Notes under the pieces: model-generated
Database searches by the model: none
What the model was told of the DNA's origin: nothing
What the model saw: only the letters and a program-made list of their open reading frames with translations
Origin: Rhizobiales bacterium IMCC20636
Lineage (GTDB): Bacteria; Pseudomonadota; Alphaproteobacteria; Rhizobiales; GCA-2746425
Length of the DNA: 64,000 bases
Reading direction: 5' to 3'
Assembly (NCBI GenBank): GCA_016865015.1
Contig: CP018226.1
Location: 62,001-126,000 of the forward strand
Shown here: in pieces, positions 1 through 12,336 of the stretch
Layout: each line of letters begins with the position of its first letter
Numbering within the stretch: the stretch's first letter is position 1
Position numbers and translations under genes: made by a program

Positions 1-526
1 TTGCGACGACAATTCCGTCTGCTTCAAGCGTGATCTTGAGCTCTGCCAGGGAAGGCAAGTTCTGCGCTGATAATCCCGAGCCCAAAATCACACCCGCATT
101 GTTCAGATTGTCCGCCAGGATCAAGGGGAAAGGCATCTCATCAGGGCGAGTGTAGCGCGACTGGAACAGCTCTAAGGCCATACTGCAAGCCGACACCGCC
201 AGTTCGGCCTGATCAACACTGGATCGCGCAGGCAATGCCGACCCAAGCGTGAATGCCACCTCAATTTCAATATCCGGAAGCACCCCGCTGAGACGGGCCG
301 GTGAACTGATCACATCGCCTCGCAGTGGCGCGGCGGCCCAGCGGACACCATCGGGGCCCATGCCGACTTTCCACCCGGAGCTGGTGTGGCGGCGCAGGTA
401 GGACGCCTGAACAGCACGCGCGTCTTCCACGCTGTGGGGAGTAACGTCCGCGGAAAGATTGTCTATCTTTGCACTACGGCGCCAAAGCTCATCGAGCAGG
501 TCCGCCGTCTGATCAGCACTGTTCAT
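1..526 (-). CDS. 2-keto-4-pentenoate hydratase (MhpD/FAH)-like protein, 5' part only
   Basis: About 175 N-terminal residues are visible on the minus strand; the rest lies beyond the left edge. It starts MNSADQTADLLDELW, then shows SGWKVGMGPDGV and IEIEVAFTLG, resembling the N-terminal half of 2-hydroxypenta-2,4-dienoate or 2-oxohept-4-ene-dioate hydratases of the fumarylacetoacetate-hydrolase fold. These enzymes hydrate or cleave 2-oxo acids and need a divalent metal. The metal ligands and active site lie mostly in the missing part, so hydratase, decarboxylase and hydrolase activities cannot be told apart. The ATG overlaps the stop codon of the DapA-like gene as ATGA, so the two are probably translationally coupled and act in one pathway. 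Confidence 0.72.
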   Translation of the reverse strand, partial: MNSADQTADLLDELWRRSAKIDNLSADVTPHSVEDARAVQASYLRRHTSSGWKVGMGPDGVRWAAAPLRGDVISSPARLSGVLPDIEIEVAFTLGSALPARSSVDQAELAVSACSMALELFQSRYTRPDEMPFPLILADNLNNAGVILGSGLSAQNLPSLAELKITLEADGIVVA

Positions 527-1404
527 GCAGATGCACTCCGTCGGAAATCCCCATCCAATGGCGGCATGGCGCGTCGCCAGGCGTCATCACCGGTGCGTGC
601 GGCGAGTCGGTATTTTAGGGCCAGAAGACCACCCTCACGGTCGATATCGGCAATGCGCTCGGCCGCCAGCGCCGCGAGCTCTTCTGCCTTCGGCCCCTCG
701 GGATCGTTGTAGAGCGCTACCAGATCGTCGACATAGAGATTGGGTAATCCGCCAATTATGCCCGCGCCGCCTGCCCGCAGCAGGCGCGGGAGCACGCGAT
801 CATCTCCGGTAAAAATTGCAAGATCCGGAAATGCACTGACATATGCCAACCCACTCGCGATATTGCCGGTCGAGTCCTTAACGCCAGCAATGATTGTGCC
901 AAGACGCTCTTGCAGCGCCCTGACAAGATCATGGGTGATGGTCACACCTGTCATTTGCGGAATATTGTAGAGCACAATGCGGATATTCGGCGACCCCGCA
1001 CGCGCGCAAACAGCGTCATAAAAGGACACCAGCCCCTCAAGGCTTGGATTCTTGTAGAAATAGGGCGGAAGCATGAGAATATCGCTGCACCCAAGGCTCA
1101 CCAGGTCCATCATTTCCTGCGCCGCGACTCCTACGGAAGGAGACATGATGGCTGGCAAGAGATGATGGGACTGAATATCAGCCTGCAAAAGCGCTTCAAC
1201 GGCCGCGCGTTTTTCGTCAGAGGTGAAGGCGACGCCTTCTCCGGTGCTGCCAAATGTCGACACACGGCTCCCGCCGCGCGCCAAGAGGTCACGGGCATGA
1301 GTTACAAGCCGGTTGATATCGATGGACAAATCTGGATGCAGAGGCGTCAAGATTGCTGTCATTATACCACTAAGCGGCGGGGCATTAGGCGCTGTAATAA
1401 TCAT
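523..1404 (-). CDS. DapA-family aldolase/dehydratase (dihydrodipicolinate synthase-like)
   Basis: This 293-residue TIM-barrel lyase belongs to the DHDPS/N-acetylneuraminate lyase family. The pyruvate-binding GSTGE motif is at residues 52-56, the family tyrosine in VLYNIP is Tyr146, and the Schiff-base lysine in GVKDSTG is Lys176. Such enzymes condense or cleave 2-oxo acids, or dehydrate sugar acids. Lying in a catabolic operon between an IclR regulator and a FAH/MhpD-like hydratase, it is more likely a sugar-acid or hydroxy-oxo-acid aldolase or dehydratase than the lysine-pathway enzyme; that role is inferred from context. It starts 20 bp after the iclR stop and overlaps the next gene by 4 bp. 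Confidence 0.85.
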   Translation of the reverse strand: MIITAPNAPPLSGIMTAILTPLHPDLSIDINRLVTHARDLLARGGSRVSTFGSTGEGVAFTSDEKRAAVEALLQADIQSHHLLPAIMSPSVGVAAQEMMDLVSLGCSDILMLPPYFYKNPSLEGLVSFYDAVCARAGSPNIRIVLYNIPQMTGVTITHDLVRALQERLGTIIAGVKDSTGNIASGLAYVSAFPDLAIFTGDDRVLPRLLRAGGAGIIGGLPNLYVDDLVALYNDPEGPKAEELAALAAERIADIDREGGLLALKYRLAARTGDDAWRRAMPPLDGDFRRSASA

Positions 1405-1424
1405 TTTGCGTGTTCTTGATCAGG

Positions 1425-2228
1425 TTATGTTTGAGAGTATTTGGGTAAGGATGACGGGACGTATCCAAGATTGCGGGAAATATCCAAACATGCCGATACG
1501 AGAAGTTTGGAGATATCGGGAGTCCTACTTCTGATGATCTCCGGGTCCGTACCAGAAACGGAACATGCCGCTACCACCCGACCACTCGTGTCGTAAATTG
1601 GAGCGCCAACACAAAAGTTGCCGATCTCATTTTCCTGGTCGTCCAATGAGTATCCTCGCTCATGAATAATCTTGAGTTGATCAGTCAGCTCGGCGAGGTC
1701 GGTGATCGTATTTGCAGTCACCCGTGGCATGCCAGAACGCTCTAAAATGTCACGTGCGTTCTGCGGTGGCATGTGCGCAAGGATTGCCTTGCCAACTCCG
1801 GTACAGTGCATCGGCATACGGTCTCCAACAGCGGTGCGGGCCACCAGGCGTCGTGATGATTCAACCGCGTAGATGTAGAGGACCCTGTCTCCATCCAAAT
1901 AAGCCAGATAGACGGACTCTCCGGCATTATCGGCGAGGGCGCGCACATGCGGTGCCGCGCGATCGCGCACTTCAACATTAACCCTGACAGATTGGGTCAA
2001 AGCCAGAGCGCCAGTGCCCAGAGCATAGGCTTCGCCATCGATCTTCTCGATCAATCCTTCAGCAATGAGCGAACGCAGGATTGTGTGGGTCGTGCTTTTC
2101 GGCATCTCCAGACGTTTGCTGATCTCGCCTAGAGAGAGCCGTGGCTCCTGGGCACTGAACAGCTTGAGCATTCGAACCGCCTTGGCTAGGCTCTTATTGG
2201 TCGACAGTTTGGTTTTTCTGGTTGTCAT
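1425..2228 (-). CDS. IclR-family transcriptional regulator
   Basis: A 267-residue regulator. An N-terminal winged helix (about residues 15-75; SLAKAVRMLKLF, then LSLGEISKRLEMPKSTTHTIL) is followed by an IclR effector domain with GDRMPMHCTGVGKAILA and a C-terminal segment with VAACSVSG. The reading frame is open upstream to 2393, but that extension would run deep into the preceding ATPase gene, so the ATG at 2228 (MTTRKTKLST) is chosen; it lies 10 bp past the ATPase stop. IclR proteins usually sense a pathway metabolite and control the neighbouring operon. A near-repeated 17-bp motif ahead of two upstream genes (10681-10697, 11776-11792) is a candidate binding site. Confidence 0.9.
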   Translation of the reverse strand: MTTRKTKLSTNKSLAKAVRMLKLFSAQEPRLSLGEISKRLEMPKSTTHTILRSLIAEGLIEKIDGEAYALGTGALALTQSVRVNVEVRDRAAPHVRALADNAGESVYLAYLDGDRVLYIYAVESSRRLVARTAVGDRMPMHCTGVGKAILAHMPPQNARDILERSGMPRVTANTITDLAELTDQLKIIHERGYSLDDQENEIGNFCVGAPIYDTSGRVVAACSVSGTDPEIIRSRTPDISKLLVSACLDISRNLGYVPSSLPKYSQT

Positions 2229-2238
2229 GTCACAGCCC

Positions 2239-3261
2239 TCAGTCGTCCTGGTCGGGCACGACACCAGCGAGATCGAGGCTTTCAGCGAGATGACACGCCG
2301 ACCAATGCCCCGGTTCAACCTCGCGCAGCGTCGGAGCCTCGGTCCTACAGATTTCCCCGGCATAACGACAGCGGGGATGGAAATAGCAGCCACTCGGCGG
2401 ATTGGCGGCGCTCGCGACCTCCCCTCCCAGAATGATGGTTTCGTCGGGGAGGTCAGGGTCTGGCTTGGGTACCGCCGACAGCAGTGCTTCAGTATACGGG
2501 TGCTGCGGGCGACTATACAACTGTTCCGTATCCGTTAATTCGATAATCTTGCCGACATACATTACTGCAACACGGTCTGCGATGTGTTCAACAACACTCA
2601 GATCGTGCGCGACAAATATAAAACTCAAATTCAACTCCTGCCGAAGATGCTGAAGCAAATTGAGAATCTGGCCCTGAACGGACACATCCAATGCGGAAAC
2701 CGGTTCGTCGGCAACAACAAGGACGGGGTCCGTCACGAGGGCACGCGCTATACAGACACGCTGGCGTTGCCCACCAGAGAAGGCATTGGGGTAGCGCGAC
2801 AGAAAAGCCGGATTGAGCCCGCATGATTCTGCGATGCGTTCTACCTTGCCATTGATCTCGGATTCGGGGATCTTCTGGGCCCGCAGGGGTTCTGCAATAA
2901 TGTCGCGCACCGTCATACGTGGGGAGAGTGAGGAAAATGGGTCCTGGAAAACCATATTCATGTGGCGTCGGTTCCGCCGCAGTGTTTTCTTGTCAGCACT
3001 TGCGAGATCGATGCTCTCGTCATCCAGTGGAGAAAAATGCACCGCCCCGCCGGTGGGATCAATGGCGCGGATTATGCAGCGTCCCAGCGTGGTCTTGCCA
3101 CACCCGGATTCACCCACCAGGCCAAGAACTTCACCCCGGGCCAGCTCAAAACTGACATCGTCGACCGCTTTGACATAGCCAGTGACCTTGCGTAGCGCCC
3201 CACTTTCGATCGGGAAGTACTTCTTGAGACCCTCAATCTTCAATAATGGCTTATTACTCAT
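2239..3261 (-). CDS. ABC transporter ATP-binding protein, OppF/DppF type
   Basis: This 340-residue ATPase starts MSNKPLLKIEGLKKYF. It has Walker A GESGCGKT, signature SGGQRQR, Walker B VVADEPVSALD, the switch histidine in VAHDLS, and the C-terminal oligopeptide/dipeptide domain with a Cys cluster (CYFHPRCRYAGEIC). It should energise the importer with its OppD-type partner. The chosen ATG overlaps the end of the upstream ATPase gene by 8 bp; an upstream in-frame extension to 3369 would lie inside that gene and is rejected. The Opp/Dpp family also carries oligosaccharides and other solutes, so the substrate cannot be read from this subunit. Confidence 0.93.
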   Translation of the reverse strand: MSNKPLLKIEGLKKYFPIESGALRKVTGYVKAVDDVSFELARGEVLGLVGESGCGKTTLGRCIIRAIDPTGGAVHFSPLDDESIDLASADKKTLRRNRRHMNMVFQDPFSSLSPRMTVRDIIAEPLRAQKIPESEINGKVERIAESCGLNPAFLSRYPNAFSGGQRQRVCIARALVTDPVLVVADEPVSALDVSVQGQILNLLQHLRQELNLSFIFVAHDLSVVEHIADRVAVMYVGKIIELTDTEQLYSRPQHPYTEALLSAVPKPDPDLPDETIILGGEVASAANPPSGCYFHPRCRYAGEICRTEAPTLREVEPGHWSACHLAESLDLAGVVPDQDD

Positions 3262-4330
3262 TTGTGGTTCCTGATTCAAGACCGGCGGCAGCGAGGACTT
3301 GGGGGTAGCGGAAGCAGGCGGATTTGTGTCCCGGCGCCACTTCGACCAGTGGCGGTACCACCTGATCACAAATGCCCGCTATGCCGACAGGGCATCGTGG
3401 AAAAAACCCACACGCTGTCGGCTTGTTAATTGGGATGGGGACGTTGCCCATGATCGTTGCAAGCGGCTCACCGGATTTCTTGCCAATGCGCGGCGCCGAG
3501 CCCATCAAACCCTTGGTGTATGGGTGCTTAACCGACCGGAATAGCTCACGAACGGGGGCGTGCTCGACAATCGAACCCATATACATCACCGCCACTTCGT
3601 CTGCCATTCGTGCGATGACACCCAGATCGTGGGAAATATAAAGGATCGCCATTCCAAGGTCTCTTTGCAGGTCCCGCATCAGGCGGAGAACCTGCGCCTG
3701 AACCGTCACGTCGAGCGCAGTAGTCGGCTCATCTGCGATCAGCAGGCGTGGACGCGAGGACAGCGCCATGGCTATCATGGCTCGTTGCCGCATACCACCC
3801 GACAGATGGTGCGGATATTTCTTGAGCGTTTCGGCCGGTGCGGGAATCCCCACCTTATCCAGCATGGCGATGGCGATCTCACGCGCTTCCTTTTTGTCGC
3901 TTGTGCGATGAAGAAGGATCGCCTCGATAAGCTGGTTACCAATAGTATGGACCGGAGAGAACGAAGTCATCGGCTCTTGGAAAATCATCGCGCATTCGCC
4001 ACCCCGAATGCGCAGCAGTTCGGGATCATTTTTGCCAAGCGCAACAATGTCAGTTGGCGGGCGATCAGCATAATGTAACAGAATCTGACCACTCGTTTTG
4101 GCAATTTTGGGTGCAATCTGCAGAATTGATTGCGCCGTCATCGTCTTGCCGCAACCGGATTCCCCCACCAAGCCAAGTGTCTTGCCAGGTTTGATCTGGA
4201 TATTCACGCCATCCGCCGCCACCAGATCACCCTCCAGAATTGGCAGGACCACGCGCAAGTTCTTGATTTCCAGCAATGGAGCGGTGGTGCTTTCGATGGA
4301 ATCTGTGGGCTGAATTACTGAAGTGGACAT
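3254..4330 (-). CDS. ABC transporter ATP-binding protein, OppD/DppD type
   Basis: This 358-residue ATPase has Walker A GESGCGKT (about residues 57-64), signature LSGGMRQR, Walker B LLIADEPTTALD, and the C-terminal oligo_HPY domain with a cysteine pattern (CGFFPRCP, then IAGICDQ). It pairs with the OppF-type subunit encoded directly downstream, with which it overlaps by 8 bp. It starts 3 bp after the stop of the OppC-type permease gene. The order binding protein, BNR protein, B, C, D, F is a complete importer with one foreign gene inserted. Confidence 0.93.
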   Translation of the reverse strand: MSTSVIQPTDSIESTTAPLLEIKNLRVVLPILEGDLVAADGVNIQIKPGKTLGLVGESGCGKTMTAQSILQIAPKIAKTSGQILLHYADRPPTDIVALGKNDPELLRIRGGECAMIFQEPMTSFSPVHTIGNQLIEAILLHRTSDKKEAREIAIAMLDKVGIPAPAETLKKYPHHLSGGMRQRAMIAMALSSRPRLLIADEPTTALDVTVQAQVLRLMRDLQRDLGMAILYISHDLGVIARMADEVAVMYMGSIVEHAPVRELFRSVKHPYTKGLMGSAPRIGKKSGEPLATIMGNVPIPINKPTACGFFPRCPVGIAGICDQVVPPLVEVAPGHKSACFRYPQVLAAAGLESGTTNE

Positions 4331-4333
4331 GGT

Positions 4334-5458
4334 TTAACTCCTGTAGGGATCAGCGGCGTCACGCAGCCCATCGCCGAGGAAGCTGAATGCGATGACGATG
4401 ATGATGATGAGACCGCCAGGCACCAAAAGCCAAGGGCTGAAGACCAGAGTCTGGATATTCTGCGAGTCAATCAGAAGCGTACCGAGGCTCACTGCCGGTG
4501 GACGAAGACCAAGCCCGAGGAAGCTCAGAGCGACTTCGCCCAAGATCATTTGGGGCACGGCAAGCGTGAGATGAACGATCAGATAACTCATGAAGCCGGG
4601 CAGCAGGTGATTGGTGATAATCTTGGCTTCGCTCACACCCGATACTTTTGCTGCCATAACGTAATCTTCCTCCCGCAGACTGAGCAGTTTCCCGCGAACG
4701 ACGCGTGCAAGCGTGGTCCATCCGACTACGGCAAGAATTGTGGAGATACCGAAATAGACCTGAATCGGCGTCCAATGTGGCGGAACCAGAGCGGCGAGAG
4801 CCATCCAAAGCGGCAATGTGGGCAGAGACTGCAGAAACTCGGTTAAGCGTTGCACAAAATTATCGACCGCACCGCCGAAATAGCCAGAAATACCGCCAAA
4901 AAAGAGCCCAAGGCCAAAGCCGATAGCGAGGCCGAACAAGCCAACAAAAAGCGATGTACGGGCTCCGAACAACATCCTGCTGAAGAGGTCGCGTCCGAGT
5001 GTGTCGGTCCCGGCGAGGAAAATCTTACCATCCCCCTCAACTCCAAAAAAGTGAGTGTCCATCGGGATGAACCCAAACAGATTGTAAGGCTCGCCTTCTA
5101 CGAAAAGGCTAATTTTATACCGCACGCTGGTATCAACCATATACTCGCGCTGAAAAGTTTCCCGGTTCAGTTCATTTTTCAGGGCATGAACGAACGGTCT
5201 GAGATGAAAATCTCCATCAGCATCGAAGAAGGTAATGGCCGTTGGTGGCGCCAGAAGATGATCGGTGTGCCTCTGGAAGGGGTCATAAGGTGCCACGAAT
5301 TCGGCAATAAGCACGATCGCATATAGAAACAGGATAAAGCCAAGAGAGACGACTGCTAGTTTGTGCCGGTAAAACTTGGACCAGAATATCTGACTACGGC
5401 TCAGGACCCGGCCACCTTGTGGAGCGGAACTCTCAGAATCAATGGTGATGCTTGTCAT
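4334..5458 (-). CDS. ABC transporter permease, OppC/DppC type, with long periplasmic insert
   Basis: A 374-residue inner-membrane permease. One N-terminal membrane segment (about residues 33-54) is followed by roughly 100 mostly polar residues, then GTDTLGRDLFSRMLFGARTS and five further hydrophobic segments. The EAA-type coupling loop carries VMAAKVSGVSEAKI. The insert between the first helix and the permease domain makes it longer than common DppC proteins of about 300 residues; similar inserts occur in YejE-like members of the family. It lies 10 bp after the OppB-type gene and 3 bp before the OppD-type gene. Confidence 0.92.
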   Translation of the reverse strand: MTSITIDSESSAPQGGRVLSRSQIFWSKFYRHKLAVVSLGFILFLYAIVLIAEFVAPYDPFQRHTDHLLAPPTAITFFDADGDFHLRPFVHALKNELNRETFQREYMVDTSVRYKISLFVEGEPYNLFGFIPMDTHFFGVEGDGKIFLAGTDTLGRDLFSRMLFGARTSLFVGLFGLAIGFGLGLFFGGISGYFGGAVDNFVQRLTEFLQSLPTLPLWMALAALVPPHWTPIQVYFGISTILAVVGWTTLARVVRGKLLSLREEDYVMAAKVSGVSEAKIITNHLLPGFMSYLIVHLTLAVPQMILGEVALSFLGLGLRPPAVSLGTLLIDSQNIQTLVFSPWLLVPGGLIIIIVIAFSFLGDGLRDAADPYRS

Positions 5459-5468
5459 GACATGCGCC

Positions 5469-6464
5469 TCAGTTGGTCCGGTTCATGCGGACACGCGGGT
5501 CCAGAATAGTCAGCAAGATGTCTGACATCACCACTCCCACCACAGTTAGCACGCCAAGCATCATCAGAGAGCTGGCCGCGACATAGGTGTCCTGCGCGAT
5601 GATGGAGCGCAAAAGGAGTGGCCCGATTGTGGGCAGACCCAGTACGATCGCGACGATTGTCGAACCCGACACAATCTCCGGCAGTAGGTGGCCAGCCGTC
5701 GAGATGATTGGATTTAACGCAACCCGAAAAGGATATTTCATCAACAAGCGCCTCTCCGGAACCCCTTTTGCGCGAGCCGTAATTACATATTGTTTCTGGA
5801 ATTCATCGAGCAGCTGGGAGCGGAGAATTCGGATCGTCGCTGCAGTCCCGGCGAGCCCCACCACCACCACAGGAACCGGAAGATGAATGAGCAGATCAAC
5901 GAATTTGTCCCAACTCCAAGGTGCATTCATGTATTGCGGTGAATAGAGCCCGGTGGGCGTGACGCCAAAGAATTTGGCGGAGCCGACCAGCAACAGTAGT
6001 GCCAACAGGAAATTCGGTACGGCGAGGCCGATTACGCCAAGCAGGTTAACAGAGTAGTCTCCGAAGGAATATTGATGGGTCGCCGAATAGAGAGCGACTG
6101 GGATCGACACGGCGTAAACAAACACCATTGAGACGATGGAAAAAATAATCGTGAGCCAGAGGCGGTCTGCCAGCAACGTCCACACGGGCTGTTGCCATTC
6201 AAAGGAATAACCAAAATCTCCCTGCGTAACAAGCGGAACAATCCAGTTCCAATATTGCACATAGAGGGGCTGATCCAGGCCGTACCGTGCGGTCAGATAA
6301 TCCAGTTGCGCTTGGCTGGCTGGAGAACCGGCAGCATCAAGCTGAGTGGAGTAGGTTTCAATAAAACTACCCGGTGGCAGATTGATAATGTAGAAGCACA
6401 CGATCGAAATCAGAGTCAGATTTACAATCATATAGCCAAGACGGCGCACCGTATAGGAAAGCAC
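5469..6464 (-). CDS. ABC transporter permease, OppB/DppB type
   Basis: This 331-residue permease has the typical family start MLSYTVRRLGYMIV, a periplasmic loop after the first helix, and five further membrane segments. The coupling loop carries QYVITARAKGVPERRL, the usual B-subunit EAA motif. It forms the membrane channel with the downstream OppC-type permease. A GC-rich hairpin lies in the 93-bp gap behind the BNR gene, so its transcript level may be set lower than that of the upstream genes. Confidence 0.93.
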   Translation of the reverse strand: MLSYTVRRLGYMIVNLTLISIVCFYIINLPPGSFIETYSTQLDAAGSPASQAQLDYLTARYGLDQPLYVQYWNWIVPLVTQGDFGYSFEWQQPVWTLLADRLWLTIIFSIVSMVFVYAVSIPVALYSATHQYSFGDYSVNLLGVIGLAVPNFLLALLLLVGSAKFFGVTPTGLYSPQYMNAPWSWDKFVDLLIHLPVPVVVVGLAGTAATIRILRSQLLDEFQKQYVITARAKGVPERRLLMKYPFRVALNPIISTAGHLLPEIVSGSTIVAIVLGLPTIGPLLLRSIIAQDTYVAASSLMMLGVLTVVGVVMSDILLTILDPRVRMNRTN

Positions 6465-6525
6465 TGATAACTTCTCCTCGTTTCCTCAAGGACGAGACAG
6501 TCCTGGGAATATAGCCCTAGAATGG

Positions 6526-6548
6526 AGCGCCGCACGGTGCGCGGCGCT
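6526..6548 (-). terminator. Hairpin between BNR gene and permease genes (possible attenuator)
   Basis: Perfect 8-bp arms AGCGCCGC and GCGGCGCT enclose a 7-base loop. It lies right after the stop of the BNR/sialidase-like gene and before the OppB-type gene. There is no clear T-run on the minus strand, so it is more likely an mRNA-protecting or attenuating structure than a full terminator. Confidence 0.45.
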
Positions 6549-6557
6549 GTTGGTGTC

Positions 6558-7769
6558 CTACAGTAATTTGCTCAGGTCCTTGACGGTACCGTACATGATG
6601 CGATTGGCATCATGGAAGTTGGGTGCCCCCCGGTAACCGCAGCGGACCGCGTAGATCAAGTCGTCTTCACCATCGAACTGCCAGTCTGTATATTGGAAGC
6701 CGGTGAGACGGATCGAGTCTTCTTTGCCAAGGCCGGTATCGTCATCGATGAGCAGTTTTATGCGACGCCAGTTCCATAAATCCTTGGAAGCCAGCAAGTA
6801 GGACCGGTTGCGTTGCCGCATGGAGTGGTCAGCATGGAAGCGTGTGAAGGAGGTGTCATCCTCACGCGCCCACTGTCGCAGAATGTCCTGATCATCCAGT
6901 GCGTTTCCTATTGTCAGGTACTCACCTGACACTGGGTCGCGACGGATCGTGAGTTTGGCCTTGCACCCCGGCAGATCGAAATAGTCCTTGGTCGGATCGA
7001 AGGTGATGCGCTGTCCATCGTCCTCAATCTTGATGCGGGCAGACTTTTCGGCCTCGAGTGGGCCGGCTTCGAAGGTCATGATGTCCCACAATTGACCATC
7101 AGGATCGACAACAACATTGCCCTCGCGCCAGCCAGGCTTGAGCGTGCGGCCCCAACTCTTCGGCACCCAAGCAGGGTCAAACGCCAGCTTGTTGCTCATA
7201 GTCCAGTTTTTGGCATTGAGAAGATCTGAATCGACTGGTGCGGAGACCACCAAAGCCTGGAAACCTGTGCCCCATACGCAAGGGGTGCAGTCTTCGAATG
7301 CCTTGTAGATCCGGCCATTGTGGATGGTGACTGCAACAGGGGCGCAATGGTAGTTCGGGCCATCGTGGTAATAGCCACCGGCAAACAGCCAGCCATTTTC
7401 AGAACCGGTCGGATGGGTCCAGGTGAAACCGCCATCATCGCTGCGGCGGATTACGATTGATCCATATTGCTGCGAGGTGCCGAAGATATAAAGGGCGCCA
7501 TTGTGCAGAAACAATGTGCTCCAGTAGCAATTCATGATGTGGGTAACGTTCACCCAAGTCGCGCCATTGTCTTCGGATCGATAGATTGAAGTCAGGCTTT
7601 CTTCGGATTCCTGGTTCCTCGGGCAACCCACGCCGTAGTAGTCGTGGCTAACTACAAGTGCGCCATCTGGCAATCGAACCACGCTCGGGCTGCCGAGAAA
7701 GGTGCGGGTTTTTTCAGGTTGGTATTTAACTTGGCTAAGATTTGCAATCATTCTTGGACCTACGACCAC
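6558..7769 (-). CDS. Cytosolic BNR/Asp-box (sialidase-fold) protein inside the ABC operon
   Basis: A 403-residue protein with two clear Asp-boxes of the form SxDxGxTW (SEDNGATW near residue 66, SDDGGFTW near residue 109), the hallmark of the six-bladed sialidase propeller. It starts with VVRLPDGALVVSHD and lacks a signal peptide or membrane segment, so it should act in the cytoplasm on imported material. It lies between the binding-protein gene and the permease genes and reads in the same direction. Family members include exo-sialidases and other glycoside hydrolases or lyases, as well as proteins of unknown activity; catalytic residues cannot be assigned by eye. The start is GTG at 7769 or, six codons on, ATG at 7751. 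Confidence 0.75.
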   Translation of the reverse strand: MVVGPRMIANLSQVKYQPEKTRTFLGSPSVVRLPDGALVVSHDYYGVGCPRNQESEESLTSIYRSEDNGATWVNVTHIMNCYWSTLFLHNGALYIFGTSQQYGSIVIRRSDDGGFTWTHPTGSENGWLFAGGYYHDGPNYHCAPVAVTIHNGRIYKAFEDCTPCVWGTGFQALVVSAPVDSDLLNAKNWTMSNKLAFDPAWVPKSWGRTLKPGWREGNVVVDPDGQLWDIMTFEAGPLEAEKSARIKIEDDGQRITFDPTKDYFDLPGCKAKLTIRRDPVSGEYLTIGNALDDQDILRQWAREDDTSFTRFHADHSMRQRNRSYLLASKDLWNWRRIKLLIDDDTGLGKEDSIRLTGFQYTDWQFDGEDDLIYAVRCGYRGAPNFHDANRIMYGTVKDLSKLL

Positions 7770-7799
7770 TTTCTGGGCGTTAGAGTTTGTTGGGAAATC

Positions 7800-7826
7800 G
7801 GCCGGGCAAACATGGTCTGCCCGGCC
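7800..7826 (-). terminator. Hairpin behind the binding-protein gene (expression-tuning stem-loop)
   Basis: Perfect 9-bp arms GGCCGGGCA and TGCCCGGCC enclose a 9-base loop, 22 bp past the stop of the ABC binding-protein gene. Such hairpins often stabilise the binding-protein mRNA or stop part of transcription, so that the binding protein outnumbers the channel. No strong T-run follows on the minus strand. Confidence 0.5.
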
Positions 7827-7848
7827 GGAAGTCTTGAGGCGTGAGACC

Positions 7849-9849
7849 CTAGTCGGCTAGATACCACTGCTCAGAGTGAGCGCTACGAGTGTGGTCGATG
7901 AAGAGAGTATCTTTGCCGGGGAAGTTCTTGATCCGATTGGATCGGGCATAGATGTAGGGAACTTCGCCAACAGTGCCGATATGCAGCATTTGCTTGACCG
8001 TATTGGCAACAGCTTCAGTGCCAAGGGTATAGTACTCTGTGGAGCCCAGTTCACTGGCCTGCCACTGCTCGACCAACTTCTGCTGCGCGCGGAACTCTGC
8101 GGGAGGCTCTTCCCCTTCGGCCCCGTCGGTCAACTGCCAGGTGCGCCATGCCATACCGCCACCAAGAGGGTTTGTATCCAGGCCATATGGAGGCCTCAAC
8201 CAGATTGGACGCGTGTACATATCTTTTTCGGAGACTACGTCTGCAAACCATACGGACGCCTGGACCTTATTGGCGGTGATGGCTTGCTGAAATGTCTCGC
8301 GCGTGACCGTGTTGACCTGGGTCGGCACGCCGATATCGGTCCAGTACTCTGCGATCAGCTCTGAGAGCTGCACACGATTGACTGCATCGTTCAGAATGAG
8401 ACGCAACTCTTCACCGTCGGGCCGCAGACGGACACCATCGGGACCCTTTTTCAGACCCATTTCGTCAAGTAGAGCATTAGCCTGATCGACATCGTAGTCA
8501 GCGTAGTACTGACCCATCCAGTCCTGATAGAATGGTGATGCCGAGGAAACGCCCCACTGCCGCGGGGTGCCAAGACCAAAGAAGATCGTATCGTTGATTT
8601 CTTGGCGGTTCACGGCAAGTGACATAGCCTGACGGAACGTGACGTTGTTGAAGATTTCGCGCAGAACGGGGTCATCAACAGTCAGGTTGAACTGATACTT
8701 CATTGCCGCGCCTTGGTCGGCCTTGAATAACATCGTGGTGTAGTTGCCGGTCTGCTCGCCAGCTTTCAGGACAGGCAAGTCCGGCTGGGCGAACTTATCA
8801 GCATAGTCGAGCTGGCCCGACTGAACGTTGAGCTTGACCACTTCCGGGTCCGGAATGAGCATGCGAACCTGCTCGTCAATATAGGGAAGCTGGTTCCCTT
8901 CAGTATCGACTTTCCAGTAATATGGATTGCGCTGATAGTAGCGATTGCCGAACTGATCAACTTCGCTCAGTACCCATGGCTTGAGAACCGGAAGGTTTTG
9001 GTCGACCTGGAAATCTTCCACCTGGCCTTCCTGGTGAGAGACAAATGCATCAACCCAGGACGAGAAGCCTTCTTCCTCTGCCACTTTCTCAGCATCTGGA
9101 TTATAAGCCTTGTGCCATTTTTCCAGATAGTGCTTTGGCGCGATGGGGAAACCCGCTTTCGAGCGCGCAACATTCAGGATAAAGGCCGGGTTTGGCTGAG
9201 GAAAATTGAACTGTACTGTGATGTCATCAATCTTTTCGACAGTTACTGGCTGACCACTGATAACAAAATTGCCGGGCAGGGGCGGCAATTCCGGATTCTC
9301 TCCGATATCGTTGAAATAGAACATAATGTCATCGGCTGTCAGTGGCTGGCCATCGCTCCACTTCATGCCGCGACGCAAGGTGACCTTTGCAGACATGTTG
9401 TCGTCAGCAAGTTCGATATTTCGAGCGATGTCGGGGAAGACAACTTCCCAGTTCGTCGTGAAGCCAGCCAAGTGAGCGTCGGACGCGGCATAGCCGATAT
9501 TACCGAATGACTGTGGATTGGTGGCATTGTAGCGGACCGTGCCACCGTAGGTGCCAATGCTCTCCCGAGGGCGAACAACCATGACGTCTTCACGCACAGG
9601 TAGCCGATCGGCCAATGGCGGCAGGCTGCCATCAGCGACTGCGGCTTCGAACAGGGGTGATTGCTTGAATTCAGGAACGGTCGCTCCCTTTTCTGCTTCG
9701 TAGTCTGATAGACTCCAAGCCATGAAATCATCAACGAGCTTTATTTCCTGCGCCATTGCATAGGTGGCAGTGCCAGTGATATTCAGGCCCACCCCAGTGA
9801 CAACAGCGAGGGCCGCTGTCCCAAGTAACTTTTTAACTCTAGTATACAT
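7849..9849 (-). CDS. ABC transporter substrate-binding protein, large peptide/oligosaccharide type (SBP family 5)
   Basis: A 666-residue secreted protein. MYTRVKKLLGTAALAVVTGVG is a signal peptide, with probable cleavage after TYAMA. The body has family-5 features such as VTLRRGMKWSDGQPLTADDIMFYF, VTFRQAMSLAVNRQEIND and NPYYWKVDTEGNQLPYIDE. At about 650 mature residues it is longer than standard dipeptide-binding proteins of about 510, as in the group often linked to oligosaccharide or large-solute uptake. ATG 9849 is chosen because an AGGGAC stretch lies just upstream; a further in-frame ATG at 9867 is possible. It should deliver substrate to the OppB/C permease encoded downstream. Confidence 0.9.
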   Translation of the reverse strand: MYTRVKKLLGTAALAVVTGVGLNITGTATYAMAQEIKLVDDFMAWSLSDYEAEKGATVPEFKQSPLFEAAVADGSLPPLADRLPVREDVMVVRPRESIGTYGGTVRYNATNPQSFGNIGYAASDAHLAGFTTNWEVVFPDIARNIELADDNMSAKVTLRRGMKWSDGQPLTADDIMFYFNDIGENPELPPLPGNFVISGQPVTVEKIDDITVQFNFPQPNPAFILNVARSKAGFPIAPKHYLEKWHKAYNPDAEKVAEEEGFSSWVDAFVSHQEGQVEDFQVDQNLPVLKPWVLSEVDQFGNRYYQRNPYYWKVDTEGNQLPYIDEQVRMLIPDPEVVKLNVQSGQLDYADKFAQPDLPVLKAGEQTGNYTTMLFKADQGAAMKYQFNLTVDDPVLREIFNNVTFRQAMSLAVNRQEINDTIFFGLGTPRQWGVSSASPFYQDWMGQYYADYDVDQANALLDEMGLKKGPDGVRLRPDGEELRLILNDAVNRVQLSELIAEYWTDIGVPTQVNTVTRETFQQAITANKVQASVWFADVVSEKDMYTRPIWLRPPYGLDTNPLGGGMAWRTWQLTDGAEGEEPPAEFRAQQKLVEQWQASELGSTEYYTLGTEAVANTVKQMLHIGTVGEVPYIYARSNRIKNFPGKDTLFIDHTRSAHSEQWYLAD

Positions 9850-9906
9850 TCTAAGTCCCTCTCCCATGAGTAGTTTCAGTTTTCTTACCCTGTCGACAGC
9901 CGGGTG

Positions 9907-10641
9907 TTACCACTCGCCTGATCGACCAAGTTTTTTACGCGCTGCAGCGCCAAATTTCTTTTCAGCTTCAACCATGGCTGCTCGAGTTTCGTTCATGCTT
10001 CGTCCTCTCAGCTGCTGGCTTGCATCGATGACGGAATTGCACTCGTTGGCGTCCATGAACTCGGTAGCTTCAAGGACGCGCGCTTGATCTTCTTCAGGAA
10101 TGACCATGAAGCCATGCCTGTCAGCATGGAGGAGCTGACCAGAGCTAACCTTAAGTCCGAACACTTCCACTTCATGCCCCCAGCGGACCGGCCAAGCGTA
10201 GGCATGTCCAACACAGAGCCTCTTGGCGAGAGCCTTGTATCCCAGGGATTCCATCTCCACGACATCTCGAATTCCGCCGTCAGTGATCATGCCGACACAG
10301 CCCAGCGCCCGGTGCAGGCTCGCATTAACTTCGCCAAAATATGTTCCGATGATGTCGGGACTGTTTACGTCTTTGACGACTACAATTTTCGGACCGGGGA
10401 CACTTTCAAGATAGGCTCGATATTCCTGCGGGGCATCTTTGCGCTCCATATGAGCAGGGTTGTTCGGGTCAACTTCGAGCGTCACTGCATAGCCAACCAT
10501 GGCGCCAAACTGTGGCATGAAGTCCTGGACATCATCGCGATTTACGACGGTGCGGCGATCTACCTCGCTCACCAACTCCCAGCCATTATAGACTGTCGGA
10601 GTCGAAAAGCGGCGCAGCCGCAATAGGTCGCCATTCGGCAA
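9907..10641 (-). CDS. RraA-family aldolase/decarboxylase-like protein
   Basis: This 244-residue protein of the RraA/HMG-aldolase family has the conserved GCVGMITDGGIRDV and PVRWGHEVEVFGLKVSSGQLLHADRHG motifs; the family binds a metal-pyruvate complex near the GxxxxDGxxRD region. Most members are 4-hydroxy-4-methyl-2-oxoglutarate aldolases or oxaloacetate decarboxylases, and some cleave sugar-derived acids. In this operon a retro-aldol step on a 2-oxo acid is plausible. The frame given begins with TTG. A CTG at 10659 stands 5 bases behind a strong AGGGAGG and would add six residues, so the true start may be there. Confidence 0.85.
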   Translation of the reverse strand: MPNGDLLRLRRFSTPTVYNGWELVSEVDRRTVVNRDDVQDFMPQFGAMVGYAVTLEVDPNNPAHMERKDAPQEYRAYLESVPGPKIVVVKDVNSPDIIGTYFGEVNASLHRALGCVGMITDGGIRDVVEMESLGYKALAKRLCVGHAYAWPVRWGHEVEVFGLKVSSGQLLHADRHGFMVIPEEDQARVLEATEFMDANECNSVIDASQQLRGRSMNETRAAMVEAEKKFGAAARKKLGRSGEW

Positions 10642-10680
10642 TTGGGGTTTCTTGTTCAGTTTAACCTCCCTGTGCGTTCA

Positions 10681-10697
10681 GCATTATGGAACGCTAT
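10681..10697. promoter_or_regulatory. Candidate operator, copy 1 of a repeated 17-bp motif
   Basis: The sequence GCATTATGGAACGCTAT lies just ahead of the RraA-like gene. It matches GCATTGTGGAATGGTAT, ahead of the oxidoreductase gene (11776-11792), at 14 of 17 positions. A motif shared by the two leader regions of the operon is a natural candidate for the IclR-family regulator; that assignment is inferred. A perfect 14-bp palindrome ATTGTTTAAACAAT follows at 10706-10719. Confidence 0.45.
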
Positions 10698-10755
10698 TCT
10701 GTAATATTGTTTAAACAATCATGTTTTGGATTGTTGGTCAATCATTTTTGGATTC

Positions 10756-11721
10756 TTATTCGAAATTTTCATATTGCTGTTTGCGGTCACGTATTGCTGT
10801 GCCCGCCGCAATTGAAAGACGATGCGTAACCAGCGCATCTGCATAAGTGCAGAAGACGTCTGCCGGGGAGTCGGATTGAACAGCGTCGAAGAACCGCTTG
10901 TTCTGGGCCGCGTAACTGTTCGTCCGACAGGTAATGCGCTCTTCGACGCCATTGCGAATAATGCTGAGCCCCTGGAGACTAATTTTCATTTCGCAGCCAT
11001 CACAAATCAGATGAAGTTCAGCGCCAGACCCATGGGGCAATACGCAGGTCGCCGTGACGACACATGGTCTATCGCCGAAGCGAAACAGCGCAGCGCTGGC
11101 GCTCGCGATATCTCCGTCATCGAAGCCGGGTAAAGGACCTTTGTGACCGGTGGCGGCAAGAAACTCTCCATCCCCGACAAGGTGACGCGCGAGGTCGATG
11201 AGGTGACAGGCCTGCTCTACCATCTGGCCGCCACTCTCGGCCTCGAAGCGCCACCATGGAGCCTGGGGGGTTCCAATATGAAAGTGGCCGATCATCATTC
11301 TCGGTGGTGTCAAGGCAAGCTGCTGTTTTACGAGGTTCAGGCAGTCTATGGATCGCCAATTGTAACCGACGGCGGTGACCAGGCCTTTGGCCGCAATACT
11401 GTGTGCGATGGTTTCAGGGACATCCAGAGCAAGCCCAATAGGCTTTTCAACCAGAAAAGGAATCCCCGCATCAATGAGCGTGTGCTCGATCATCCCATGC
11501 TGGCTCGGTGGTACAGTTACGATTACGGCATCAGGCCTCCCCTCCGAAATGAATTTATCAATTTCGCCGTAGGGCTTTCCACCAAATCTCTGAGAAGCAA
11601 GTTCGCTCCTGGTAAATGTGCGGGATAGATGAGCAACGACTTCGATCTCGTCACTCGCCTCCCCAATACAGTTCAAATGCCGAGCCGCAATAGCACCCGT
11701 GCCGATCAATCCTAGTCGCAA
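10756..11721 (-). CDS. Gfo/Idh/MocA-family NAD(P)-dependent oxidoreductase
   Basis: This 321-residue dehydrogenase has an N-terminal Rossmann fold (MRLGLIGTGAIAARH, with GxGxxA), the family EKP motif (LVEKPIGL, about residues 91-98) and the C-terminal sheet domain with GGQMVEQACHLIDLAR, whose histidine often takes part in catalysis. The family oxidises or reduces sugars, inositols and sugar acids. It is the first gene of the leftward run, so it probably performs an early step on the imported compound. About 100 bp separate it from the RraA-like gene, so a second promoter may lie there. Confidence 0.88.
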   Translation of the reverse strand: MRLGLIGTGAIAARHLNCIGEASDEIEVVAHLSRTFTRSELASQRFGGKPYGEIDKFISEGRPDAVIVTVPPSQHGMIEHTLIDAGIPFLVEKPIGLALDVPETIAHSIAAKGLVTAVGYNWRSIDCLNLVKQQLALTPPRMMIGHFHIGTPQAPWWRFEAESGGQMVEQACHLIDLARHLVGDGEFLAATGHKGPLPGFDDGDIASASAALFRFGDRPCVVTATCVLPHGSGAELHLICDGCEMKISLQGLSIIRNGVEERITCRTNSYAAQNKRFFDAVQSDSPADVFCTYADALVTHRLSIAAGTAIRDRKQQYENFE

Positions 11722-11775
11722 GTTTGCCTCCCCACTTCACATTCAATCTGGTAGCCAATTTTTGAACTCTATACC

Positions 11776-11792
11776 GCATTGTGGAATGGTAT
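11776..11792. promoter_or_regulatory. Candidate operator, copy 2 of a repeated 17-bp motif
   Basis: GCATTGTGGAATGGTAT lies 55 bp ahead of the oxidoreductase start and differs from the copy at 10681-10697 at only three positions. Its core CCGCATTGTGG (from 11774) is an imperfect inverted repeat, as expected of an IclR-type site. Confidence 0.45.
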
Positions 11793-11839: not shown

Positions 11840-12068
11840 CGGTCGTCTGTATCTGCCCGGGATTATCAGAAGCGGTTCCATCGCAGATTTTCTGAAGCCA
11901 GTTCCGAGCTTGAGCTATTCAGTGACGCTGATCTGGGCCGTGACATTGAGTGCTTCACCGACATGACCAAACAGCCGCGTCCTTGGCTTTGACGCCTATC
12001 AGCCAACACCTGACAGCTTCATCCAGGTGTTCGACGAACTGCGCGCCCGCAAGATCATCCCATCCTGA
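11840..12068 (+). pseudogene. Decayed coding fragment with a frameshift, family not recognised
   Basis: Inside the otherwise empty 694-bp gap between the two metabolic groups, one frame reads a coding-like peptide that includes YQKRFHRRFSEASSELELF and ends TDMTKQPRPWL-stop near 11992. The next frame continues without a gap as GFDAYQPTPDSFIQVFDELR...IIPS and stops at about 12066. A one-base shift near PRPW joins the two, which suggests the tail of a broken gene. I do not recognise the family. No start codon or promoter is evident. The rest of the gap (11722-12415) shows only regulatory sequence. Confidence 0.4.
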
Positions 12069-12336
12069 GACCGCACGAAGACGAGCAAAAGCGCTGCGTC
12101 ATCAATGGTTTTGGATATAACGGTGCCGCAGGAGGCATGTCGAAACAGAATCTCTACGCGGATTGTTTGGAATCAATCGGTTAGAACCTTTCTGGATTTC
12201 CGAAGCCCAACTTGTGCGGATGAAACCTTATTTTCCACTGTTGCACTGCATCCCGCGTGTCGATGTCCATCGTGTACTGTGTCTAATTCAGAGCAGATCA
12301 GCTCAACGGACCATTGTTGCGTAACTTCAGACTGGA

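What the first reader, a model, noticed from the sequence alone, without database searches (positions are those of the whole stretch)
1..11721. Possible undescribed uptake and breakdown pathway (ABC importer, BNR protein, three lyase-type enzymes, dehydrogenase, IclR)
Eleven leftward genes combine a large family-5 binding protein and full importer with a cytosolic sialidase-fold protein, a Gfo/Idh/MocA dehydrogenase, and DapA-, RraA- and MhpD/FAH-type enzymes. All three lyase types act on 2-oxo or hydroxy-oxo acids. Import, internal hydrolysis or lyase action, oxidation, then hydration and aldol cleavage form a coherent route for a glycoside or sugar acid, but I know of no standard pathway with this set.
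Basis: inference. Interest (0 to 1): 0.7.

Follow-up and report, generated by a model that had tools for sequence, protein, structure and literature searches.

The report
Sugar-acid uptake and breakdown operon
A block of bacterial genes that appear to be switched on together imports an unidentified, probably acidic sugar compound and breaks it down inside the cell with an unusual sialidase-shaped protein, and its core recurs in very distant bacteria, so it looks like a real pathway that has not been characterised.

Summary
The eleven leftward genes are real. The order Gfo-RraA-SBP5-BNR-OppBCDF-IclR-DapA recurs in four other Hyphomicrobiales loci, three with an FAH gene at the end. SBP5 with Opp genes accompanies BNR in 21 of 24 loci of one scan, 19 of the 24 from Anaerolineae/Chloroflexota. 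A palindrome fit for IclR precedes RraA in 5 of 5 operons; a strict form occurs twice in the 4.79-Mb genome, before RraA and before Gfo. BNR models as a sialidase-type propeller. It keeps the catalytic Glu, Tyr and third Arg, lacks the first Arg (27 of 27 rows) and has Thr for the second: not a classical sialidase. DapA looks an intact Schiff-base enzyme but not DHDPS. Distant BNR relatives lie in Kdo-exopolysaccharide clusters in 7 of the 7 Burkholderiaceae genomes found with one, of 200 searched. Best reading: import and cytosolic hydrolysis of a sugar-acid glycoside, perhaps a 3-deoxy-ulosonate, then aldol cleavage. Activity and substrate are unproven. My paper searches found no described operon of this make-up.

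The parts
10756..11721 (-). Gfo/Idh/MocA dehydrogenase, TTG start
   Evidence: Pfam PF01408 8e-18; relatives 55-61% in four sister operons
9907..10659 (-). RraA-like class II aldolase type; start probably CTG at 10657-10659 (first ATG/GTG/TTG start is at 10641)
   Evidence: Pfam PF03737 6e-18; DG..RD motif in 8 of 8 rows; in-frame CTG after GGGAGG in 5 of 5 operons
7849..9867 (-). Family-5 solute-binding protein, 672 aa
   Evidence: Pfam PF00496; PDB relatives 5ipw 294 bits, SPH1118 236 bits
6558..7769 (-). BNR protein, sialidase-type propeller, no signal peptide seen by eye
   Evidence: Model pLDDT 86.4, pTM 0.89; Foldseek best GH93 and GH33; residues
5469..6464 (-). OppB-type permease
   Evidence: Pfam PF00528, PF19300
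4334..5458 (-). OppC-type permease
   Evidence: Pfam PF00528, PF12911
3254..4330 (-). OppD-type ATPase
   Evidence: Pfam PF00005, PF08352
2239..3369 (-). OppF-type ATPase (true start probably further in)
   Evidence: Pfam PF00005, PF08352
1425..2228 (-). IclR-family regulator
   Evidence: Pfam PF01614, PF09339; 73-75% in four sister operons
523..1404 (-). DapA-superfamily Schiff-base aldolase or dehydratase
   Evidence: Pfam PF00701; Lys176, Tyr146 and GSTGE present, DHDPS Arg absent
1..526 (-). FAH/MhpD-type hydratase, cut by the window edge
   Evidence: Full gene L009:11801-12526; Pfam PF01557 31.1 bits; PDB hydratases and 4-oxalocrotonate decarboxylases, best 43 bits
10675..10693 (-). Putative IclR operator before RraA
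   Evidence: Palindrome conserved in 5 of 5 operons; the only match with fewer than 2 mismatches in the genome
10736..10741 (-). TTGACC, putative -35 box
   Evidence: Present in 5 of 5 operons
11774..11787 (-). Second copy of the strict operator form, before Gfo
   Evidence: not found before Gfo in the four sister operons with the patterns

Best explanation
An IclR-controlled catabolic operon. SBP5 and OppBCDF import a glycoside or oligosaccharide that contains a sugar acid. In the cytosol BNR hydrolyses it with a sialidase-type Glu/Tyr pair and an altered carboxylate pocket. DapA then splits (or dehydrates) the released 2-oxo sugar acid, most likely of the 3-deoxy-2-ulosonate type, giving pyruvate and an aldehyde. 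The Gfo-type enzyme oxidises or reduces the sugar or aldehyde, and the FAH/MhpD-type hydratase and RraA-type aldolase finish the route. Shown: gene set, conservation, operator-like sites, predicted fold, retained catalytic residues. Inferred: activity, substrate, order of steps, binding of IclR.
For: Conserved order in five operons; SBP5 and Opp beside BNR in 21 of 24 loci; shared operator form before RraA and Gfo; BNR keeps Glu216, Arg320 and Tyr360 in 27 of 27 rows on a sialidase-type fold; DapA-superfamily gene in 10 of 24 loci; distant BNR relatives in Kdo clusters in 7 of 7 Burkholderiaceae genomes that have one; DapA catalytic residues kept.
Against: No activity is shown. The first Arg of the sialidase triad is lost in all 27 rows and the second in the window's clade, which weakens a carboxylate-bound ulosonate substrate. 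The Kdo clue comes from about 36% identity, and the B. pyrrocinia strain in the paper read made cepacian while other species made galactan-Kdo. 14 of 24 loci show no DapA-type gene in the fetched flank. Gfo and RraA are in only 4 and 5 of 24.
Confidence: 0.4

Rival explanations
1. The operon imports pectin- or ulvan-type uronate oligosaccharides; BNR acts as a lyase or uronidase, and DapA, RraA and FAH process 2-keto-3-deoxy sugar acids.
For: The binding protein is related to the pectin-binding SPH1118 (236 bits); the PL25 ulvan lyase is among the fold matches (TMq 0.44); sulfatases stand near BNR genes in L036, L022 and L033.
Against: Only 3 of 14 alignable SPH1118 ligand contacts are kept; sialidase and GH93 folds match better than PL25.
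Confidence: 0.2
2. BNR is a GH93-like glycosidase for a neutral glycoside, and the Gfo, FAH, RraA and DapA enzymes oxidise and cleave the released sugar after conversion to a sugar acid.
For: The top fold match is a GH93 exo-arabinanase (3a71, TMq 0.59); two of three carboxylate-binding Args are absent in the window protein.
Against: Arg320 invariant in 27 of 27; 15% identity over the fold alignment only; Kdo-cluster linkage of distant relatives.
Confidence: 0.15
3. BNR is not an enzyme but a carbohydrate-binding or assembly factor, and the operon imports oligosaccharides or peptides that other enzymes break down.
For: The importer matches oligopeptide-type families; the triad is incomplete.
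Against: Catalytic-type Glu, Tyr and one Arg are invariant in 27 of 27 rows, and identity between phyla is 57-70%.
Confidence: 0.1
4. A classical sialic-acid operon.
For: Sialidase-type fold with a DapA/NanA-superfamily enzyme.
Against: Arginine triad broken; none of the eleven genes fell in a NanK, NanE or NagA/B family; NanA's Asp-Glu reads Asp-Arg in 5 of 5 operon DapAs.
Confidence: 0.03

Closest known systems
GH33 sialidases and KDNase (fold matches 8t1y, 1eur, 7p1s)
   Same: Predicted fold (TMq 0.53-0.58); Glu, third Arg and Tyr positions, Asp boxes
   Different: First Arg is Gly, second Arg is Thr; no significant PDB sequence match for the single protein
GH93 exo-arabinanases (3a71, 2ydp)
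   Same: Best fold match, TMq 0.59-0.60
   Different: 11-15% identity; GH93 catalytic residues not compared
BNR protein of Burkholderiaceae Kdo-exopolysaccharide clusters (L039 and seven genomes)
   Same: About 36% identity; same GSPS, EGNVV and FQYVDWQFDG motifs
   Different: Lies in a biosynthesis cluster, signal-like N-terminus by eye, second Arg present; no function known to me
SPH1118 pectin-binding protein of Sphingomonas sp. A1 (PMC9314435, passages read)
   Same: Same large family-5 binding-protein type (236 bits)
   Different: Only Arg466, Asp483 and Val484 of 14 alignable ligand contacts kept
E. coli NanA and DapA
   Same: Schiff-base Lys and Tyr; NanA-like GSTGE
   Different: 23% identity to each; no DHDPS Arg; Asp-Arg for NanA's Asp-Glu

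Membership tests
GH33 sialidase | Six-bladed propeller fold | tested here: met
   Confident model and Foldseek matches; the number of blades was not counted from coordinates
GH33 sialidase | Three carboxylate-binding arginines | tested here: not met
   Gly26 in 27 of 27, Thr232 in the window protein, Arg320 kept
GH33 sialidase | Catalytic Glu and nucleophile Tyr | tested here: met
   Glu216 and Tyr360 in 27 of 27, aligned with two full-triad environmental sialidases L084, L087
GH33 sialidase | Acid/base Asp | tested here: inconclusive
   No Asp aligns clearly; Asp43 and Glu57 are invariant nearby
GH93 exo-arabinanase | Its own catalytic residues | not tested
   Only fold similarity was seen
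DHDPS (DapA proper) | Arg in the YNVPSRTG motif | tested here: not met
   YNIPQMTG in the window, M in 5 of 5 operon rows; below the TIGR00674 cut-off
N-acetylneuraminate lyase | Asp-Glu pair that stands in YDE of E. coli NanA | tested here: not met
   DDR in 5 of 5 operon rows; that this pair binds the substrate tail is recalled
SPH1118-type pectin-binding protein | Ligand-contacting residues | tested here: not met
   3 of 14 alignable contacts kept, two more lay beyond the alignment
RraA-like class II aldolase | DG..RD motif (recalled as active site) | tested here: met
   8 of 8 rows
FAH/MhpD hydratase | Glu-x-Glu motif (recalled as metal site) | tested here: met
   Glu87 and Glu89 in 4 of 4 rows

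The most novel reading that the evidence does not exclude
The operon is a dedicated pathway for ulosonate (Kdo- or Dha-type) glycosides of plant, algal or bacterial surface glycans. It uses a new branch of the sialidase superfamily: Arg-bearing members act on Kdo polymers, and the window-type branch has swapped an Arg for Thr to take a different acid. The package moved between Chloroflexota and Alphaproteobacteria.
Probability: 0.2. Interest if true: 0.7.

Novelty: new variant of a known kind. Interest (0 to 1): 0.45.

Why it matters
It defines a compact, testable module (binding protein, sialidase-fold protein, importer) shared by uncultured Anaerolineae, a Trueperaceae genome and Devosia-like bacteria. 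If the substrate is a Kdo-type acid, it would be a dedicated breakdown route for a sugar of outer membranes and of some plant and algal glycans (the occurrence is general knowledge). It also shows a sialidase-type propeller that has lost part of the signature arginine triad while staying 57-70% identical between phyla.

Tried and rejected
Classical sialidase, DHDPS, N-acetylneuraminate lyase and pectin-binding readings were tested and not met (membership table). A profile of the BNR family against PDB sequences gave 16 weak matches: an oligoxyloglucan hydrolase at E 1.2e-6 made of short Asp-box pieces, and GH93 and sialidase chains at E 0.05-1.1. Single-sequence phmmer gave no PDB match for BNR up to E 1, none for RraA up to 1e-3, none for Gfo up to 1e-10. 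The looser operator search gave 19 hits with up to 3 mismatches against 11 for the reversed control; the one with 2 mismatches lies inside an ABC-transporter gene and I take it as chance. The RraA homologue of G258 lies among tripartite-transporter genes, with no SBP or BNR recognised by eye. An empty site in genus mate G040 was sought: its PRISE gene has other neighbours, so none was shown. Paper searches for such an operon or for Kdo hydrolase and aldolase links gave nothing on it (listings only); RG-II papers were seen as a listing. Passages on Kdo hydrolases of other germs held no mention of a sialidase; no sequence comparison was made.

Dropped rows: the L037 row was given out of frame, and the rows from L077, L078, L079, L088, L090, L092 and L093 read as wrong-frame stretches; L076, L080, L083 and L085 gave no row. 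All were disregarded. Of the BNR_2 rows that read as real, L084 and L087 have the full triad, and L082 lacks the first Arg; the distant rows L072, L073, L075, L018e and L036c lack it too, so that loss is not special to this family. Alignment A1 holds 27 rows, not every BNR copy found. The ORF ladder is unreliable in GC-rich loci and was replaced by tblastn.
Full report
What is there. The eleven leftward genes are present as described. The leftmost is cut by the window edge and complete in the contig. Pfam gives Gfo/Idh/MocA, RraA-like, SBP_bac_5, a sub-threshold BNR_2, two permeases, two ATPases, IclR, DHDPS and FAA_hydrolase. Left of the window lie a D-2-hydroxyacid dehydrogenase on the same strand and a PRISE-like reductase on the other. 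On the right, tripartite-transporter genes run away from the operon.

It is a conserved unit. Four other Hyphomicrobiales loci (L015, L016, L017 and L071 of G201) show the order Gfo-RraA-SBP5-BNR-OppBCDF-IclR-DapA. Identities to the window: BNR 86-87%, SBP5 75-80% and Gfo 55-61%, RraA 75-83%, DapA 61-71%. Three of the four also gave an FAH match, 41-45%; L015 gave none. The unit is rare: BNR is in 3 of 397 genomes of the order, one match very weak, and in none of four genus mates; a strong SBP match is in 2 of 297.

The core crosses phyla. One scan of named genomes with BNR gave 24 loci: three alphaproteobacterial, 19 Anaerolineae/Chloroflexota, one Trueperaceae, one Lentisphaeria. At the identity limits set, SBP5, OppB, OppC, OppD and OppF are each in 21 of 24, IclR in 10, RraA in 5, Gfo in 4; several loci are cut short by contig ends. 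Fifteen loci have two BNR copies, one has four, eight have one. A DapA-superfamily gene is in 10 of 24 (the profile was seeded from seven sequences, four of them from loci counted here; the L036 one is a fragment). The DapA rows of L021 and L031 are only 18-19% identical to the window's. In a tree of 37 rows the window-type BNR is in a clade of 17 rows (100/100). Inside it the five alphaproteobacterial rows stand beside L019 and L031, both Anaerolineae isolate UWPOB_ANAER3; this genome also has RraA, Gfo, DapA-type and IclR genes near its BNR copies. I infer that a package moved between phyla. The tool warns of long branches, so the outer part of the tree is unsure.

Regulation. Before RraA a palindrome of the form GCGTTCMRYAWTGCTGAACGC (with up to a few changes) follows a TTGACC box in 5 of 5 operons. 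The strict form RTTCCAYAATGCNG, read off the window itself, occurs twice in the 4.79-Mb genome, before RraA and before Gfo, against one hit for the reversed control. With up to three mismatches the fuller pattern gave 19 hits and its control 11, so only close matches mean anything. The second site was not found before Gfo in the four sister operons. That the operon's own IclR binds here is inferred.

The BNR protein. The model is confident (pLDDT 86.4, pTM 0.89). Foldseek's best matches are GH93 and GH33 enzymes: 3a71 TMq 0.59, 8t1y 0.58, 1eur 0.58, the KDNase 7p1s 0.53; PL25 ulvan lyase 0.44. Against two environmental sialidases with the full signature (L084, L087), the family keeps the Glu, third Arg and Tyr (27 of 27) and has Gly for the first Arg (27 of 27). 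The second Arg is Thr in 16 rows, Ala in 1, Arg in 10. The 17 Thr/Ala rows are the 17 of the window clade, so the loss of this Arg looks derived. Other distant BNR proteins also lack the first Arg.

A clue to the substrate. Among 72,556 plasmid records the one match is a 36%-identical protein of Burkholderia pyrrocinia, beside kpsF, kdsB, a HAD gene and kdsA in an exopolysaccharide cluster. Of 200 Burkholderiaceae genomes 7 have it. In 6 of 7 kdsA, HAD, kdsB and kpsF lie near it; in the seventh kdsA, HAD and kpsF lie further along the same cluster and kdsB was not seen. Species of the Burkholderia cepacia complex make a galactan-Kdo polymer; in that paper the B. pyrrocinia strain was the cepacian producer (PMC3983119, passages read). 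That this cluster makes galactan-Kdo is my inference. In G552 a weak BNR relative (E 6.6e-4) stands beside a DapA-type gene (26%) and a gene that I took by eye for YhcH; YhcH is an anomerase that feeds NanA (PMC8141875, start of abstract in the listing).

The other enzymes look intact. DapA keeps the Schiff-base Lys, the Tyr and GSTGE, lacks the DHDPS Arg, and has Asp-Arg where E. coli NanA has Asp-Glu, in 5 of 5 operon rows. RraA keeps DG..RD in 8 of 8 rows. FAH keeps Glu-x-Glu in 4 of 4. The binding protein is related to SPH1118 but keeps 3 of 14 alignable ligand contacts (contacts from PMC9314435, passages read).

Conclusion. This is a genuine, probably co-regulated catabolic operon, likely passed between phyla, built round a sialidase-superfamily protein that fails the sialidase signature. 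A sugar-acid glycoside is the likeliest substrate and a Kdo-type acid the boldest reading. Nothing here proves activity or substrate.

Noticed in passing
window 10657-10659: RraA probably starts at a rare CTG codon: an in-frame CTG after a GGGAGG box stands at the same place in 5 of 5 operons.
   Followed up: partly
window 11920-12183 and L009:9953-10218: Direct repeat of 267 columns, 88.8% identical, flanking the operon region; it holds the end of a PRISE-like reductase gene. Perhaps a trace of insertion; no empty site was found in G040.
   Followed up: partly
L036:517-7745; L022:601-3232; L033:13608-14969: Sulfatase genes stand near BNR genes in several Chloroflexota loci, hinting at a sulfated glycan there.
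   Followed up: partly
L039:11878-13077; L070, L102-L107: A BNR relative sits next to a putative polymerase gene in Burkholderiaceae Kdo-exopolysaccharide clusters.
   Followed up: yes
L072:3662-10977: Cluster with a PdxA-like gene, an alcohol-dehydrogenase-like gene, DapA type, symporter, BNR, YhcH-like gene and SDR, mostly named by eye.
   Followed up: partly
L009:10335-11957: A D-2-hydroxyacid dehydrogenase follows FAH on the same strand; its relative was in 0 of 24 loci.
   Followed up: partly
MT840048.1:1986-3053 (hit H2): A 32%-identical BNR relative in a short record filed as a phage from human faeces.
   Followed up: no
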